NCBI GenBank assembly: GCA_030447875.1
Contig: JAUJOA010000001.1
Location: 124,001-188,000 of the forward strand
Direction of reading: 5' to 3'
DNA: 64,000 nt
Source: Thermoleophilaceae bacterium
GTDB lineage: Bacteria > Actinomycetota > Thermoleophilia > Solirubrobacterales > Thermoleophilaceae
Below are positions 4,942 to 38,449 of this stretch, piece by piece (position 1 is the first letter of the stretch; each line of letters opens with the position of its first letter). The notes beneath the pieces were generated by a model. That model did no database searches and was not told the origin of the DNA. It worked only from the letters and a program-made list of their open reading frames with translations. The translations under genes and the position numbers were made by a program.

Positions 4942-5877
4942 CCCGCGCTCGGGCGGCGGAATGGCTCGCGCCAGCCGCGCATCGAAGAGCTCGAGAGTCG
5001 CGAGCCCGCACGCGAGCGACACTCCCTCGGCGGCGGCCAGCTGGAGGGCGGCCGCGATGCCCCACGGACCGTCGAGCGTGCTCGAGAGGAACGCGTCGAG
5101 ACCGTGCTCCCGCGCCGCCCTCAGGGCGTCACGCGCGGCCCCGAACCCGCCGCTCCCGGCGACCTTCACGTTCACGGCGTCGCACGCCCCGACCGTCGCG
5201 GCCCGCTCCACGTCGGCTGCCGAGGCGATCGGCTCGTCCGCGGCCACGGGCGGCTCGACCGCCGCCCGCACCGCGGCGAGCTCCTCGAGCGTTCGGCACG
5301 GCTGCTCCACCAGCTGGACGTCATACGGAGCGAGAGCGCGGGTCGTGGCGACCGCCTCGTCCACGTCCCAGGCGCCGTTCGCGTCGATCCGCAGGGCGGG
5401 CCATGGTCCGATGACCTCTCTCACGGCCGCGACCCGCTGCTCGTCGTCGGGGAGCCCCACCTTGACCTTGAAGCACGAGTAGCCGGCTCGCAGGCCCTCC
5501 TCCGCGCGCGCCGCCACCTCGTCGGGCGGGCCCGCGGGCAGCGTTCGGTTGACCACGATCGCGTCGGCCCCCGGCTCGCCGATCGGGCGACCCGCGCGTC
5601 GGGCCGCCAGGTCGAGTCGCGCGAGCTCCTCGGCCGCTTGCGCCTGTGGCGGCGCGCGCCCGTCCCCGCCCGCCGCTCGCCCGTCGCGCAGTGCCGCTGC
5701 CGCTTCGTCGATCGAGACCCCGTCGTAGGGTTCGAAGGGCGCCGCCTCGCCGTGGCCCACGGCGCCGTCGTCGTCCTCCAAGCGGAGCAGGAGCAGCTCT
5801 CGTGCGGCCACGACTCCAGCGGCCGTCGCAAACGGCTCGCGGAACGGGATCGACAGCCGCTTGATCGTTCGCCTCAC
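4855..5877 (-). CDS. menC: o-Succinylbenzoate synthase (MenC)
   Basis: A 340-residue enolase-superfamily enzyme that dehydrates SHCHC to o-succinylbenzoate. The catalytic set is present: Lys pair in CFKVKVGLP, metal ligands Asp in RIDANGAWD, Glu in QLVEQP and Asp in AADEPIA, and the second catalytic Lys in AVNVKVAGSGG. GTG 5877 overlaps the menA stop as GTGA, which implies translational coupling and agrees with the start of the conserved region, [15 protein letters not shown]. The final 87 bases are shared with menH on the plus strand, an unusually long tail-to-tail overlap. Confidence 0.94.
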   Translation of the reverse strand: MRRTIKRLSIPFREPFATAAGVVAARELLLLRLEDDDGAVGHGEAAPFEPYDGVSIDEAAAALRDGRAAGGDGRAPPQAQAAEELARLDLAARRAGRPIGEPGADAIVVNRTLPAGPPDEVAARAEEGLRAGYSCFKVKVGLPDDEQRVAAVREVIGPWPALRIDANGAWDVDEAVATTRALAPYDVQLVEQPCRTLEELAAVRAAVEPPVAADEPIASAADVERAATVGACDAVNVKVAGSGGFGAARDALRAAREHGLDAFLSSTLDGPWGIAAALQLAAAEGVSLACGLATLELFDARLARAIPPPERGLLAVPQGPGLGVAADEAALSEVLVEELV

Positions 5878-14748: not shown

Positions 14749-15756
14749 GTGATCACAGAGGCCGGGGCCCCCGACGTGCTGAAGGTCCAGGACCGGCCGG
14801 CGCCCGCACCGGGAGCGGGTCAGGTCCGCGTTGCGGTAAAGGCGGCCGGGATCAACTTCGCCGACGTGATGGCGCGCATGGGCCTCTATCCCGACGCGCC
14901 GAAGCTGCCTGCCGTAGTCGGCTACGAGTTCGCCGGCGAGGTCGAGTCGCTCGGTAGCGGGGTGGATGGCGTGACGGCCGGCGATCGCGTCCTCGGCGGC
15001 TGCCGCTTCGGCGGCTACGCGGAGCAGGTCGTGGTAGACGTGGACCAGCTCATCCCCCTGCCCGACGGCTGGAGCTTCGAGGAGGGCGCCGCCCTGCCTG
15101 TGAACTACTCGACCGCCTACGCCGGGCTCGTGCGCTACGGATCGCTTCACGCGGATGAGCGCGTGCTCCTGCACGCGGTGGCCGGTGGGGTCGGGATCGC
15201 CGCCACGCAGATTGCCAAGCAGGTCGGAGCGGAGGTGTTCGGCACGGCCTCGGCTTCGAAGCACGCGGCCGTGCGCGGCTTCGGGGTCGACCATCCGATC
15301 GACTACCGGTCCGAGAGCTTCGTGAAGGCCGTTCGCCGCATCACCGGGGAGAGGCAGTCGCTCGACCTCGTGATGGACGCGGTGGGCGGTTCGAGCTTTC
15401 GCAAGAGCTTCTCGCTCTTGCGACCGGGCGGTCGCCTGGTCTGCTTCGGCGCTTCGGCGCTCGTCAGCGGCGAGAAGCGCAGCATCCCGACCGCGGTCAA
15501 GGGCGTGGTGCAGACGCCCTGGTTCAACCCGATGCGGCTGATGCCCGAGTCGAAGGCCGTGATCGGCCTGAACATGCTCACGCTGTGGGACGCGAAGGGG
15601 TCGCTCGAGGAGTACGTCGAGCCCCTGCGTGGCTGGCTCGAGTCGGGCGCGGTCAGGCCCGTGGTGGCGGAGGCGTTTCCGCTCGAGCGAGGGCCCGACG
15701 CGCACCGCTTCATACAGGAGCGGAAGAACGTCGGGAAGGTAGTTCTCACCCTGTAG
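14749..15756 (+). CDS. NADPH:quinone oxidoreductase-like MDR protein
   Basis: A 335-residue medium-chain dehydrogenase/reductase of the zinc-free quinone-oxidoreductase group. The N-terminal GroES-like half contains AAGINFADVMARMGLYP and VGYEFAGEV. The NADPH domain contains HAVAGGVGIAATQIAKQVGA and LVMDAVGGSSFRKS. No structural or catalytic zinc-ligand set is visible. GTG 14749 is the only near in-frame start, although the preceding codons (IRAL) look like a typical N-terminus, so a few residues may be missing. Substrate is unknown. Confidence 0.87.
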   Translation: MITEAGAPDVLKVQDRPAPAPGAGQVRVAVKAAGINFADVMARMGLYPDAPKLPAVVGYEFAGEVESLGSGVDGVTAGDRVLGGCRFGGYAEQVVVDVDQLIPLPDGWSFEEGAALPVNYSTAYAGLVRYGSLHADERVLLHAVAGGVGIAATQIAKQVGAEVFGTASASKHAAVRGFGVDHPIDYRSESFVKAVRRITGERQSLDLVMDAVGGSSFRKSFSLLRPGGRLVCFGASALVSGEKRSIPTAVKGVVQTPWFNPMRLMPESKAVIGLNMLTLWDAKGSLEEYVEPLRGWLESGAVRPVVAEAFPLERGPDAHRFIQERKNVGKVVLTL

Positions 15757-15770
15757 GCTGTCTTGCAGCG

Positions 15771-15824
15771 ATGTCGTTCACGCTCGACCTGCGACTTCTC
15801 CTTCTCCCCCTGCGGGGGGAATAG
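15771..15824 (+). CDS. Leucine-rich leader peptide upstream of leuA
   Basis: A 17-codon ORF reads MSFTLDLRLLLLPLRGE and stops at TAG 15822-15824, 62 bases before leuA. Seven of its 17 residues are Leu, with four in a row, as expected of an attenuation leader that senses charged leucyl-tRNA. Leucine-rich leaders before leuA are known in actinobacteria. The Leu codons used are CTC, CTG and CTT. No strong ribosome site precedes it. Confidence 0.65.
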   Translation: MSFTLDLRLLLLPLRGE

Positions 15825-15859
15825 CGCGCGGCGGCCGCGAAGCCGCACACGAAGGAGAA
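15796..15859 (+). promoter_or_regulatory. leuA leader RNA: Leu-codon tract complementary to GAAGGAGAA
   Basis: The Leu-codon tract TTCTCCTTC (15796-15804) is perfectly complementary over 9 bases to GAAGGAGAA (15851-15859), which looks like a ribosome-binding sequence. Competing hairpins lie between them: CCCCC-TGC-GGGGG at 15806-15819 and GCGGC/GCCGC near 15831-15845. A ribosome stalled on the Leu codons would block the long pairing and change the fold before leuA. There is no T-run, so control may act on translation or through Rho. Confidence 0.5.
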
Positions 15860-15886
15860 CGGGGACGAGCAACTGAAAGGGACGAC

Positions 15887-17491
15887 ATGACTCATCACAT
15901 GCCAGACGTACGGCGCGAGCAGACCGATCGGGTACGGATCTTCGACACGACCCTGCGCGACGGCGAGCAGTCGCCCGGCATCTCGCTCAACAAGCAGGAG
16001 AAGGTCGAGATCGCCCAGCAGCTCGCGCGCCTCGGCGTGGACGTGATCGAGGCCGGCTTCCCGATCACCTCGCCGGGTGACTTCGACTCGGTCCAGGCGA
16101 TCGCGCGGGAGGTCGAGGGCCCGGTCATATGCGGCCTGGCCCGCACGAGCTTTCAGGACATCGACGCGGCATGGAACGCCATCCGCGACTCCGAGCGCCC
16201 GCGTATCCATACGTTCATCTCGACGAGCGACATCCACATCGAGCATCAGCTCCAGACCACGCGCGACGACGTGAAGGGTCAGGCGCGCGCCGCGGTGGCG
16301 CACGCCCGCTCGTACACCGACGACGTGGAATTCTCCCCGATGGACGCGACGCGCGCGGACGTCGACTTCACCGCCGAGGTGATCAGGATCGCGCTCGACG
16401 AGGGCGCCACCACAATCAACGTCCCGGACACCGTCGGCTACACGCTGCCCCAGGAATACGCGGCGATGTTCGAGGAGCTCTATCGCCTGGTGCCCGGCCT
16501 CCGCGACGTCGTCGTCTCGGTCCACTGCCACAACGATCTCGGTCTCGCCGTCGCCAACTCCTTCGCCGGCCTCGGCGCCGGCTGCCGCCAGGTGGAGTGC
16601 GCCGTTAACGGCATCGGCGAGCGCGCGGGGAACGCCTCGCTCGAGGAGATCGTGATGCTGCTGCGCACGCGCGAGGCCAGCGTCGGGCTCTGGACCGCGG
16701 CGGACACGCGCGAGATCGCGCGCACGAGCCGACTCGTCTCCCGCCTGACCGGCTATGCGGTGCAGCCCAACAAGGCGATCGTCGGGCGCAACGCCTTCGC
16801 GCACGAGTCGGGCATCCATCAGGACGGCGTGCTGAAGGACCGCACGACCTACGAGATCATGGATGCGACCACGATCGGGCTCGAGACGAACGCGCTGGTG
16901 CTCGGCAAGCACTCCGGGCGCCATGCACTGCGCAACGCGCTTCAGGAGCTCGGCTTTCAGGTCGAGGGCGCGGCGCTCAACACCGCCTTCAAGCGCTTCA
17001 AGGAGATCGCCGACAAGAAGAAGCGGGTCACGGCGCTCGACCTCGAGGCGATCGTGTCCGACGAGATGCGCCAGTCCCCCTCGGCTTACGGCCTCGAGTG
17101 GTTCGAGGTGGAGGCCTCGTCCACCCGGGCGCCCCTGGCACGCGTTCGAGTGAGGCTCCCGGGGGGCGAGGTCGTCGAGGGCAGCTTCACCGGCGATGGA
17201 CCGGTCGATGCCTTCTTCAGCGCGATCAACGCCGCCACCGGCAGGGAGGGGCGCCTGAAGGAGTACCACGTGAGCGCTGTCACCGGCGGCCGCGACGCAC
17301 TCGGCGAGGTCACCGTGCTCCTCGAGCTGAACGGCGTCACGGCGTCCGGCCAGGGCGTGTCCACGGACATCCTCGAGGCGTCGGGGCGCGCCTACCTGCG
17401 GGCGCTCACGAACGCGCTCGCCGACTCGCCGGTGGCCGAGGCCGAGCACCACCTCGAGCGCGCGAGCGCGGCAAGTACGCCGACCCCTTAA
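15887..17491 (+). CDS. leuA: 2-Isopropylmalate synthase (LeuA)
   Basis: This 534-residue enzyme condenses acetyl-CoA with 2-oxoisovalerate, the first step of leucine synthesis. The catalytic TIM barrel starts RIFDTTLRDGEQSPGISL and has the metal site HCHNDLGLAVANS and the loop NGIGERAGNASLEE. Next come GRNAFAHESGIHQDGVLK and LGKHSGRHAL. A C-terminal regulatory (LeuA dimer) domain from about residue 390 implies leucine feedback. ATG 15887 follows GAAAGGGA at 15875-15882. A leucine-rich leader lies just upstream. Confidence 0.96.
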   Translation: MTHHMPDVRREQTDRVRIFDTTLRDGEQSPGISLNKQEKVEIAQQLARLGVDVIEAGFPITSPGDFDSVQAIAREVEGPVICGLARTSFQDIDAAWNAIRDSERPRIHTFISTSDIHIEHQLQTTRDDVKGQARAAVAHARSYTDDVEFSPMDATRADVDFTAEVIRIALDEGATTINVPDTVGYTLPQEYAAMFEELYRLVPGLRDVVVSVHCHNDLGLAVANSFAGLGAGCRQVECAVNGIGERAGNASLEEIVMLLRTREASVGLWTAADTREIARTSRLVSRLTGYAVQPNKAIVGRNAFAHESGIHQDGVLKDRTTYEIMDATTIGLETNALVLGKHSGRHALRNALQELGFQVEGAALNTAFKRFKEIADKKKRVTALDLEAIVSDEMRQSPSAYGLEWFEVEASSTRAPLARVRVRLPGGEVVEGSFTGDGPVDAFFSAINAATGREGRLKEYHVSAVTGGRDALGEVTVLLELNGVTASGQGVSTDILEASGRAYLRALTNALADSPVAEAEHHLERASAASTPTP

Positions 17492-20539: not shown

Positions 20540-21899
20540 ATTCCGCGCACGCTGCTCGACAAGATCTGGGAGGCCCACGAGGTCACGCGCGACCTGCTCT
20601 TCGTGGACCTCCATCTCGTGCACGAGGTCACCTCGCCGCAGGCCTTCGACGGTCTCCGGCTGGCCGGCCGGAAGGTTCGCCGCCCGGACCGCACGCTCGC
20701 GACCGCCGACCACAACGTGCCGACAGACGGCTCGGTGGTCGCCGCGCAGATCGCCGATCATCTCTCGCGGGTCCAGGTCGAGACGCTCGAGCGCAACTGC
20801 CGCGAGTTCGGCATTCCGGCCTACTCGCTCGGCTCGGAGCGCCAGGGGATCGTGCACGTGATCGGCCCGGAGCTTGGCGTCACGCAGCCGGGCATGACGA
20901 TCGTCTGCGGCGACTCCCACACCGCCACTCACGGAGCGCTCGGAGCGCTCGCCTTCGGCATCGGAACCAGCGAGGTCGAGCACGTGCTGGCCACCCAGAC
21001 GCTCCAGCAGACGAAGCCTAAGTCGATGCGCATCCGCTACGACGGAGAGCTCGGCTTCGGCGTGACCGCCAAGGACCTGATCCTCGGCACGATCGGCCAG
21101 ATCGGCGTGGACGGCGGCGTGGGCTACGCGATCGAGTACGCGGGCTCGGCCATCGAGGCGCTGTCGATGGAGAGCCGCATGACGGTCTGCAACATGACCA
21201 TCGAGGCCGGCGGGCGGGCGGGAATGGTCGCACCCGACGACACCACGTTCGAGTGGCTCGAGGGTCGGCCGGCGGCACCGGCGACGATTCCCGACGAGTG
21301 GCGCGAGCTGCGCACCGATCCAGGCGCTCACTTCGACGCCGAGGTGGAGGTCGACGCGTCCGCGCTCTCCCCGCAGGTCACCTGGGGCACCACCCCCGGC
21401 ATGGTCGTCCCGGTCACGGGAAGGTGCCGCAGCCCGGCTCCGAGGGCGATGAGCGCGCGCTCCTCTACATGGACCTCGAGCCGGGAACGCCGATCGAGCA
21501 GATCGAGGTCGAGCGCGTCTTCATCGGCTCCTGCACCAACTCACGGGTCGGCGACCTGAGGGCGGCGGCGAGGGTAGTGGAGGGCCGGCGTGTGAGCGAT
21601 CGCGTCAAGGCGATGGTCGTGCCCGGCTCGCAACAGGTGAAGGCGCAGGCCGAGGCCGAGGGCTCGACGATGTCTTCCGCCGTGCGGGCTTCGACTGGCG
21701 CTCGGCGGGCTGCTCCATGTGCCTGGGCATGAACCCCGACATCCTCGAGCCGGGCGAGCGCTGTGCGTCCACCTCGAACCGCAACTTCGAGGGTCGTCAG
21801 GGTCGCGGCGGGCGCAGTCACCTCGTGAGCCCGCAGATGGCCGCTGCCGCCGCGATCGAAGGACGGTTCGTCGACGTCAGGAGCTGGGCTGATGGGTAG
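20540..21899 (+). CDS. leuC: 3-Isopropylmalate dehydratase large subunit (LeuC), two frame breaks
   Basis: An aconitase-family [4Fe-4S] subunit. Homology begins at [14 protein letters not shown], preceded by ATT 20540 where family members have ATG; GGAG lies nine bases upstream at 20527-20530. Landmarks are [33 protein letters not shown] in [12 protein letters not shown], and the cluster cysteines in [12 protein letters not shown]. One G seems missing at 21418-21420 and one C near 21661-21664; repairing both gives full length. LeuC with LeuD isomerises isopropylmalate and probably citramalate-pathway intermediates. Confidence 0.88.
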
Positions 21900-21936
21900 G
21901 CGGTGGATGATGGACGCTGCACAGGGCTCTAGGTCC

Positions 21937-21963
21937 GCCATCTGCCATCTGCCATCTGCCATC
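21937..21963. repeat. Short tandem repeat (GCCATCT)n between leuC and leuD
   Basis: Three full copies plus a partial copy of the 7-mer GCCATCT lie in the 83-base spacer 21900-21982 between leuC and leuD. The spacer also has ATG/GTGG-rich sequence (GGTGGATGATGG) unlike the surrounding coding DNA. Close LeuC/LeuD spacing is usual, so this looks like a small inserted or expanded spacer. Confidence 0.7.
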
Positions 21964-21982
21964 CCGGACCGGAGGTCGGCTG

Positions 21983-22545
21983 ATGGACCCGATACGCATA
22001 ATCGAGGGCGCGGTCTCGGTACTCAACCGCGCGGACGTCGACACCGACCAGATCATGCCCAAGCAGTTCCTGAAGCGGGTCGAGCGGACCGGCTTCGGCC
22101 AGTTCCTCTTCCACGACTGGGCGAAGCAGCCGGGCTGGCGCCTCGACCCGCATCCGATCCTCGCCACCGGACGCAACTTCGGCTGCGGCTCCTCGCGCGA
22201 GCACGCGCCGTGGGGGCTGCAGGACTACGGCTTCAAGGCGATCGTCGCCCCCTCCTTCGCCGACATCTTCTACTCGAACTGCACGAAGATCGGGCTCCTG
22301 CCGGTGCCGCTCCCCGGGAGCCCGACGTGGAGGAGCTGATGCGCGCCGGGCGCGCCCGTATAGACCTCGAAGAGCAGAAGGTGTCGTTCGCCGGCCGCCA
22401 GGTGCCCTTCGACATCGCCCCCGAGACGGCCAGGCGGCTGCTCGAGGGACTCGATGACATCGGCGTCACGTTCCAGGCCGAGCACGCGATCGACGCCTAC
22501 GAGCGCGACCGCGAGCGCTCCGGGCCGGTCACGACGGCGCTGTGA
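21983..22545 (+). CDS. leuD: 3-Isopropylmalate dehydratase small subunit (LeuD), one frame break
   Basis: The swivelling subunit of isopropylmalate isomerase, about 187 residues after repair. It begins [20 protein letters not shown] and has [19 protein letters not shown], the substrate loop [17 protein letters not shown] and [16 protein letters not shown]. The frame changes in the CCCCGGG run at 22312-22318 (one base missing), then continues as [11 protein letters not shown] to VTTAL. It overlaps the methyltransferase start as GTGA. Confidence 0.9.
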
Positions 22546-25448: not shown

Positions 25449-27049
25449 ATGACTCAGCAGGTCCTCCTCTATGACACGACCCTTCGCGACGGCATGCAGG
25501 GCGAGGGCATGTCACTCTCCGTGGACGAGAAGCTCCGCGTGGCTCACGCGCTCGACGGCCTGGGGATCCACTTCATCGAGGCCGGCTTCCCGGGCTCGAA
25601 CCCCAAGGAGGAGGCGTTCTTCGATCTCCTGGCGGCCGAGCACTTCGAGCACGCCGAGGTGGCGGCCTTCGGGATGACCCGCCGGCGCGGACTGAGAGCT
25701 GCCGACGACCCCACCCTGCGCCTGCTGGCGGAAGGATCCGCCCCGGTCTGCACCCTTGTCGGCAAGACGTGGAAGCTCCACCTCGAGAAGGTCACGCGCG
25801 TCGACCCCAACGAGAACCTGGCGATGATCGCCGACTCGGTTGGCTTCCTCCGCGATCAGGACCGGCGCGTGATCTACGACGCCGAGCACTTCTTCGACGC
25901 CTTCCGCGACGACGCCGACTACGCCCTGCGCTGCGTGCGCGCGGCGCTGGAGGCCGGAGCGGAGAACGTCACGCTGTGCGACACGAACGGATCCTCGCTT
26001 CCATCGGACGTGGAGGCGGCCACGGCACGCGTCGTGCAAGAGGTCGGCGGTGCCGTAGGCATCCACACCCACGACGACGCGGGCTGCGGGGTCGCCAACT
26101 CGCTCTTGGCGGTCGAGAGCGGCGCGTCGCTCGTGCAGGGCACGATGAACGGCTACGGGGAGCGCTGCGGCAACGCCAACCTCGTCTCGATCATCCCCGC
26201 CCTGCAGCTAAAGCTCGGCTTGAAGTGCATCGAGCGGGAGCTTCTATCGCGCCTCACGGAGACAGCGCACCTAGTGGACGAGATCTGCAACGTGACGCCT
26301 GGCCCTAACCAGCCCTACGTCGGAAAGAACGCCTTCGCGCACAAGGGCGGCATGCACGTGGCCGGCGTCACCCAGGACTCACGCACGTTCGAGCACGTGG
26401 ACCCCGCAGCCGTGGGCAACGATCGTGAGCTGCTCGTCTCGGAGCTCTCCGGTCGCGGGACCGTGCACGCGCGCCGAGCAGACCGGCGTGGTGCTCGATG
26501 AGCACGCTGCCAAGCGCGCCGTCGAGCGCGTCAAGCGGCTCGAGCACGATGGCTTCCAGTTCGAGGCCGCCGATGGCTCCTTCGACCTCTTGATCCGCAG
26601 GGAGGCCGGCGACTACGAGCCACTCTTCCGGCTCGAGTCGTTCCGCGTGATCGTCGAGAAGCGCGAGGACGGCAAGGTCCAGACGGAGGCGACGATCAAG
26701 ATCTGGGTCGAGGGAGCGCTACGTGCGCACCTCGGAGGGCAACGGCCCCGTCAACGCGCTCGACCGCGCGCTTCGCGACGCTATCGGGGAGACGTACCCG
26801 CACCTCCGCGACATCGAGCTCGTGAACTTCAAGGTCCGCATCCTGGACGAGGCCAAGGGCACCGGCGCCGTCACGCGGGTCCTGCTCGACGCCAGCGACG
26901 GCGTGGACACCTGGGGCTCGATCGGCGTGTCCGAGAACGTCATCGAGGCGAGCTGGGAGGCTCTCGTCGACTCACTCGAGGCCGGGATGCTCCCGAGCCG
27001 CGCGGAGAACACGCGTCTGGCGGCGGAGGCTCGAGCGGGCCAGCCCTGA
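25449..27049 (+). CDS. cimA: (R)-Citramalate synthase (CimA), two frame breaks
   Basis: A LeuA-superfamily enzyme that condenses pyruvate with acetyl-CoA, opening a threonine-independent route to isoleucine. The CimA signature is LYDTTLRDGMQGEGMSLSV, then EAGFPGSNPKEEAFF, HTHDDAGCGVANSL, NGYGERCGNANL and KNAFAHKGGMHV. The C-terminal regulatory domain continues after breaks near 26468-26474 (a CG pair apparently missing in CGCGCG) and 26712-26714. The three pieces join smoothly to LAAEARAGQP. It ends the leuCDB-ilvE operon. Confidence 0.9.
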
Positions 27050-33475: not shown

Positions 33476-38259
<4,784 letters not shown>

Positions 38260-38331
38260 GGATACTTCGATGCCTGATTCGCGCGGCCAACTGTGCGGTT
38301 TTGAGGGTCCGGCGAGGCCGGTCCCGCCACT

Positions 38332-38449
38332 TTTCGGTGGTCATAGCGAGGGGGAAACACCTCTTCCCATTCCGAACAGAGCAGTTAAGCCCCTCAGCGC
38401 CGATGGTACTTGGCCTTCGCGGGCCTGGGAGAGTAGGTCGCCGCCGATT
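38332..38449 (+). rRNA. rrf: 5S ribosomal RNA
   Basis: About 118 bases with the expected TCGGTGG/CCGCCGA terminal helix, GGGGGAAACACC, CCATTCCGAACAGAGCAGTT and CGATGGTACTTGG. It lies 72 bases after 23S and closes the rRNA operon in the order 16S-23S-5S. Ends are approximate. Confidence 0.95.

What the first reader, a model, noticed from the sequence alone, without database searches (positions are those of the whole stretch)
15771..15859. Leucine-rich leader peptide and Leu-codon/GAAGGAGAA pairing before leuA
A 17-codon ORF with seven Leu codons lies 62 bases before leuA. Its Leu tract pairs perfectly over 9 bases with a GAAGGAGAA sequence downstream, and GC hairpins compete. This couples ribosome position on the Leu codons to RNA fold. 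The lack of a T-run argues for translational or Rho-based control rather than classic termination.
Basis: partly seen in the sequence, partly recalled or inferred. Interest (0 to 1): 0.6.

Follow-up and report, generated by a model that had tools for sequence, protein, structure and literature searches.

The report
Leucine leader switch before leuA
A tiny leucine-rich reading frame in front of the leucine-biosynthesis gene leuA folds back on the start site of leuA, so a ribosome held up for lack of leucine would open that start site; this type of switch was known upstream of leuA in other actinobacteria, and here it is a distinct, strongly conserved version across a whole bacterial class.

Summary
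The 17-codon ORF (15771-15824, seven Leu codons), the perfect 9-bp pairing with GAAGGAGAA (15851-15859) and the missing terminator all check out. The element is conserved: a covariance model finds it in 202 of 232 genomes of the order (107 of 112 good ones), and in all 60 pairs compared it lies 21-138 nt before LeuA. The two GC hairpins do not compete with the Leu pairing; they nest inside it. The 5' side of the fold is the whole leader ORF: beyond the Leu pairing, the leader's first codons pair with the leuA start. These pairings covary between species (permutation p<1e-4; control regions do not). A TAnnnT -10 box sits 7-13 nt before the leader start in 75 of 75 loci, and 72 of 75 leaders lack a Shine-Dalgarno site, so the leader is probably (near-)leaderless. 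The same element also precedes a non-orthologous yeast-type leuA and, once, a leuS-leuA operon. Best reading: translational attenuation by ribosome stalling on Leu codons. The known relative is the actinobacterial LEU element/LeuL leader; this is a structurally distinct variant, not a new mechanism. No expression data exist; the leucine response is inferred.

The parts
15754..15759 (+). probable -10 box TAGGCT; overlaps the stop codon (15754-15756) of the upstream quinone-oxidoreductase-like gene
   Evidence: TAnnnT at gap 7-13 nt before the leader start in 75 of 75 loci and nowhere else in the 60 nt upstream; inferred, no TSS data
15771..15824 (+). leader ORF MSFTLDLRLLLLPLRGE*, probably translated from a leaderless or nearly leaderless mRNA
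   Evidence: counterpart in nearly all of 80 relatives with upstream sequence; no SD in 72 of 75 leaders
15771..15779 (+). 5' strand of outer helix P0 (AUGUCGUUC), includes the leader start codon
   Evidence: MFE; own-versus-exchanged partner test p<1e-4 with 29 representatives; register table with alternative pairs
15782..15786 (+). 5' strand of helix P0b (GCUCG)
   Evidence: MFE
15795..15806 (+). four consecutive Leu codons CUU CUC CUU CUC: presumed sensor codons and 5' strand of P1 (15796-15804)
   Evidence: sequence; CUU is 35% of Leu codons in leaders vs 3% in window genes
15806..15819 (+). hairpin P2, CCCCC-UGCG-GGGGG, in most relatives CCCCC-YUCG-GGGGG; the stop codon lies just after it, or in its loop in other lineages
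15831..15846 (+). hairpin P3, GCGGC-CGCGAA-GCCGC; sequence replaced but pairing kept in the class (GUUUGCC/GGCAAAC, GCCCGG/CCGGGC, GCCGG/CCGGC)
15851..15859 (+). GAAGGAGAA, 3' strand of P1 (anti-Leu)
   Evidence: sequence; covariation
15866..15870 (+). 3' strand of P0b (CGAGC)
   Evidence: MFE
15876..15882 (+). leuA Shine-Dalgarno site AAAGGGA
   Evidence: sequence; an SD core is present before leuA in 75 of 75 loci
15880..15888 (+). 3' strand of P0 (GGACGACAU), overlaps the SD and the leuA start codon
15887..17491 (+). leuA, 2-isopropylmalate synthase, bacterial type (TIGR00973)

Best explanation
The 5' end of the leuA mRNA is a leucine-sensing translational attenuator. Transcription starts at or a few bases before the leader AUG, so ribosomes enter at the mRNA end without an SD site. 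In the free RNA the leader ORF is the 5' strand of one long hairpin: its first codons pair with the leuA SD/start region (P0), its Leu codons pair with GAAGGAGAA (P1), and hairpins P2 and P3 form the tip. leuA is then closed. When leucyl-tRNA is plentiful the ribosome passes the Leu codons, stops at UAG behind P2, leaves, and the hairpin re-forms. When leucyl-tRNA is short the ribosome stalls on the Leu run (with the next ribosome possibly queued at the leader start), removes the 5' strand of P1 and P0, and the leuA start is opened. Shown by sequence evidence: ORF, pairings, their covariation, the -10 position, the missing terminator. Inferred: leaderless transcription, stalling, the direction of the response, and that P2 helps position the ribosome.
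For: Conservation in 202/232 genomes of the order, 60/60 compared matches just before LeuA. Own leader strand pairs better with own downstream strand than with those of relatives: z -7.3, 0 of 20000 permutations, 29 representatives; leader codons 1-7 with the leuA RBS z -5.6; two control regions show no such effect. TAnnnT box in 75/75 at a nearly fixed distance, leader SD absent in 72/75, leuA SD present in 75/75. No terminator, whereas other classes have a Leu leader plus a T-run terminator at the same place. The element follows leucine genes: also before yeast-type leuA (L217, L210, L185) and a leuS-leuA operon (L107/L220). In Streptomyces lividans the corresponding LeuL1 leader is transcribed leaderless and lacks a terminator (PMC8079986). 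Removing the leader strand in silico raises RBS accessibility in 58 of 75 loci (mean 0.40 to 0.54; window 0.40 to 0.63).
Against: With a single ribosome footprint on the Leu run the computed opening is small (mean 0.37 to 0.43, up in 68 of 107 loci) and nil in this window (0.37 to 0.38); clear opening needs the whole 5' strand covered. The Leu-tract pairing alone covaries only moderately (z -2.7) because both strands are low-complexity. For Streptomyces coelicolor leuA, leader-codon mutations were reported to act in a way not consistent with classical attenuation (as cited in PMC1262725). Related sequences are not independent, so permutation p-values are optimistic. No expression data.
Confidence: 0.72

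Rival explanations
1. Transcription attenuation: the ribosome's progress on the leader decides whether RNA polymerase stops in the leader, by Rho or by an unrecognised terminator.
For: Leu leaders with true T-run terminators exist before leuA in other classes of the phylum (L134, L138, L147, L155, L159) and before Streptomyces leuS (PMC8079986).
Against: No terminator-like site in 15400-16100; the region after the leader is richer in G than C, unlike a Rho loading site (general knowledge); the conserved pairings end exactly at the leuA SD/start, which a terminator would not need.
Confidence: 0.13
2. A regulatory protein binds the folded leader, as Seliverstov et al. 2005 proposed for the LEU element; the peptide is incidental.
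For: The P2/P3 core is very conserved within the order; Seliverstov et al. found a phylogenetic match with a putative RNA helicase (ML1624) and cited Leu-codon mutations without the expected effect (PMC1262725).
Against: The reading frame and Leu run are kept while P3 changes sequence completely in the class; leader length changes by whole codons; codon CUU is enriched about tenfold; the -10 box is locked to the leader start codon. ML1624 orthologues were not tested.
Confidence: 0.08
3. The leader simply lowers leuA translation constitutively (an RNA brake or translational coupling), without sensing leucine.
For: Free RNA is predicted to keep about 60% of the leuA RBS paired.
Against: The amino acid repeated in the leader is the product of the leuA pathway (both leuA types) and the substrate of leuS.
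Confidence: 0.05

Closest known systems
LEU element upstream of leuA in Actinobacteria (Seliverstov et al. 2005, PMC1262725), incl. LeuL1 of Streptomyces lividans (PMC8079986)
   Same: Leader ORF with a Leu run before leuA, Leu codons pairing with a purine stretch before or at the leuA SD, no terminator, -10 box close before the leader start codon.
   Different: Different leuA family here (bacterial type TIGR00973, not yeast type TIGR00970); different inner structure (P2 CCCCC/GGGGG hairpin then P3, rather than one long CCGCGGCGAGG/CCTCGTCGCGG hairpin); leader/leuA-start pairing covaries here but not in 13 actinomycete loci (p 0.34); in this window the anti-Leu strand is separate from the SD.
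Leaderless poly-cysteine short ORFs of mycobacteria (Canestrari et al. 2020; known here only through citations in PMC9031893 and PMC13236596)
   Same: Leaderless short ORF with a run of the regulated amino acid, control of downstream translation by ribosome speed.
   Different: Cysteine rather than leucine, other genes; that one is tested by experiment, this one is not.
Classical leucine attenuators with intrinsic terminator (e.g. before leuA in other classes of the phylum)
   Same: Leu-rich leader peptide at the same place.
   Different: Here no terminator; the conserved pairing reaches the leuA start site instead.

Membership tests
LEU element (Seliverstov 2005) | upstream ORF with a run of Leu codons before leuA | tested here: met
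LEU element (Seliverstov 2005) | base stem: Leu codons pair with the leuA Shine-Dalgarno box | tested here: not met
   In the window the partner GAAGGAGAA ends 27 nt before the ATG and is not the SD. Met in relatives where the partner is the SD (L034, L036, L091-L095).
LEU element (Seliverstov 2005) | conserved pseudoknot | tested here: inconclusive
   A GCG/CGC helix between the P3 5' flank and the P3 loop pairs in 92.9% of cells but is nearly invariant; the published figure could not be read
LEU element (Seliverstov 2005) | genome carries an orthologue of ML1624 | not tested
   no reference sequence at hand
Classical transcription attenuator | intrinsic terminator hairpin with T-run before the gene | tested here: not met
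Leaderless regulatory short ORF | transcription starts at or within a few bases of the leader start codon | tested here: inconclusive
   -10 box at a 7-13 nt gap in 75/75 loci and no SD in 72/75 predict it; no TSS mapping
Leaderless regulatory short ORF | amino-acid dependent control of downstream translation | not testable with these tools
   needs experiment
Riboswitch or other Rfam family | match to a curated family | tested here: not met
   no match in the leader at gathering score or at E<=1 (L105)

The most novel reading that the evidence does not exclude
The leader's own initiation region is the anti-RBS of leuA (a start-to-start clamp). leuA would then read two signals through one hairpin: how often ribosomes initiate on the leaderless 5' AUG, and how fast they pass the Leu run, with a queued second ribosome at the leader start needed for full opening.
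Probability: 0.3. Interest if true: 0.6.

Novelty: new variant of a known kind. Interest (0 to 1): 0.45.

Why it matters
It shows that leucine control of leuA by a probably leaderless leader peptide reaches a deep class known mostly from uncultured genomes, with its own RNA architecture, and that the element stays in place when leuA is replaced by the other leuA type or preceded by leuS. Its strong covariation gives the long-ambiguous actinobacterial LEU element a concrete, testable relative.

Tried and rejected
Competing hairpins: rejected, they nest. Terminator: none. Rfam families: none, also for Streptomyces and Acidimicrobiia-like leaders. H-type pseudoknot between the P3 flank and P3 loop: possible but nearly invariant, undecided. 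The actinomycete LEU set does not show the leader/leuA-start covariation. leuS regulated by its own copy of the element: found only in G101; no other of the fetched leuS loci with a readable start had the core. R1 hits outside the class (E 6e-5 to 0.01): by inspection not beside leuA, taken as chance. Representatives at low identity cut-offs (3-6 sequences) lacked power for single helices. An off-by-one in my first register table was corrected.

Full report
What is there. The leader ORF 15771-15824 (MSFTLDLRLLLLPLRGE*) lies 62 nt before leuA (15887-17491, TIGR00973). The window belongs to a 1.7-Mb, 77%-complete genome; the closest records are Thermoleophilaceae and Solirubrobacterales bins. 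The free RNA is predicted to fold as one long hairpin: leader start 15771-15779 with 15880-15888 (P0, covering the leuA start codon), 15782-15786 with 15866-15870 (P0b), Leu codons 15796-15804 with 15851-15859 (P1), and tip hairpins P2 (15806-15819) and P3 (15831-15846); z -4.0 against shuffles.

Conservation. In the 80 leuA loci fetched, nearly every one with upstream sequence has the leader (..LDLRLLLLPLRGE or ..LLLLLPR), P2, P3 and an anti-Leu stretch; L053 is an exception. A covariance model of the core (R1) finds the element in 202 of 232 genomes of the order, 107 of 112 good-quality ones, and all 60 pairs compared lie on the same strand 21-138 nt before the LeuA homology. In a phylum sample the strong matches are confined to the class; by eye the leader is also present in class members that R1 missed (L092, L094, L097, L124, L185) and absent in G209 (L187).

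Covariation. P3 keeps pairing with entirely different sequences in the class (GCGGC/GCCGC, GUUUGCC/GGCAAAC, GCCCGG/CCGGGC, GCCGG/CCGGC), and shows a G-C to C-G swap inside the order. For the long-range pairings I compared the duplex energy of each leader strand with its own downstream strand against exchanged partners. With 29 representatives: whole strand z -7.3 (0 of 20000), leader codons 1-7 with the leuA RBS z -5.6 (0 of 20000), the same without start codons z -4.2, Leu tract z -2.7; controls with P2/P3 z +2.0 and -0.4. In the P0 register, leader position 4 alone shows UA 27, CG 6, GC 5, AU 5, GU 3 among 75 loci. Sequences are related, so p-values are optimistic, but the controls share that relatedness.

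Promoter and start. TAnnnT occurs in all 75 loci 7-13 nt before the leader start (70 at 8-12) and nowhere else in the 60 nt upstream; only 3 of 75 leaders have any SD core, all 75 leuA genes do. This predicts a 5' UTR of about 0-6 nt (inference from usual promoter spacing). The leaders use CUU for 35% of Leu codons against 3% in seven window ORFs; CUU and CUC are expected to be read by one tRNA (general knowledge).

Other targets. The same element precedes yeast-type leuA (TIGR00970) in G360 (L217), G337 (L210) and, in a divergent form, G112 (L185), and a leuS gene followed about 80 nt later by yeast-type leuA in G101 (L107, L220). In G176 it sits between a yeast-type leuA and a bacterial-type leuA and precedes the latter. 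The element thus follows leucine genes, not one gene family.

Mechanism. Translational attenuation by stalling on the Leu run fits best. The in-silico opening of the leuA start is clear only when the whole leader strand is taken away (0.40 to 0.54 on average, window 0.40 to 0.63) and weak for a single footprint. A queued ribosome at the leader start, about 8 codons upstream, would cover the rest; that is inference. P2 begins about 11 nt after the first base of the Leu run, near the ribosome's mRNA entry when that codon is in the A site, so it may slow ribosomes there; also inference.

Relation to the known. Seliverstov et al. 2005 described the LEU element before leuA in other Actinobacteria. 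Streptomyces lividans LeuL1 (MRFGLLLLSCRGEGL) is leaderless and without terminator; its peptide is identical to the leader in L177. The Thermoleophilia-type element shares logic and position but not the inner structure. In other classes of the phylum the same place holds a Leu leader with a T-run terminator (L134, L138, L147, L155, L159). No held paper mentions Thermoleophilia together with a leader peptide. Verdict: a real, new variant of a known kind of regulator.

Noticed in passing
window 20603-22545: leuC and leuD look broken into overlapping frames (ORF 20603-21559 matches only about profile positions 27-313 of 466 of leuC; leuD seems to continue in another frame near 22339): frameshifts, either assembly errors or real.
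   Followed up: partly
window 25449-26465: A second LeuA-like protein (31% identity), possibly a citramalate or homocitrate-type synthase.
   Followed up: no
L134, L138, L147, L155, L159, L181, L183, L184: In other lineages of the phylum the leuA leader is a classical attenuator: short Leu leader followed by a hairpin and T-run (e.g. CCTCCTGTGCCCTCGGGCCAGGAGGTTTTTT).
   Followed up: partly
L219 (G425:C50:4316-4382 and 5439-5505): Two copies of the element 1.1 kb apart upstream of one leuA, with an ORF on the other strand between them; looks like a local duplication.
   Followed up: no
L107/L220 (G101): leuS and yeast-type leuA appear to form an operon led by the element; the only leuS seen with it.
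   Followed up: yes
window 33476-38449: Complete 16S-23S-5S rRNA operon; ARAGORN finds no tRNA gene in it or anywhere in the window.
   Followed up: no
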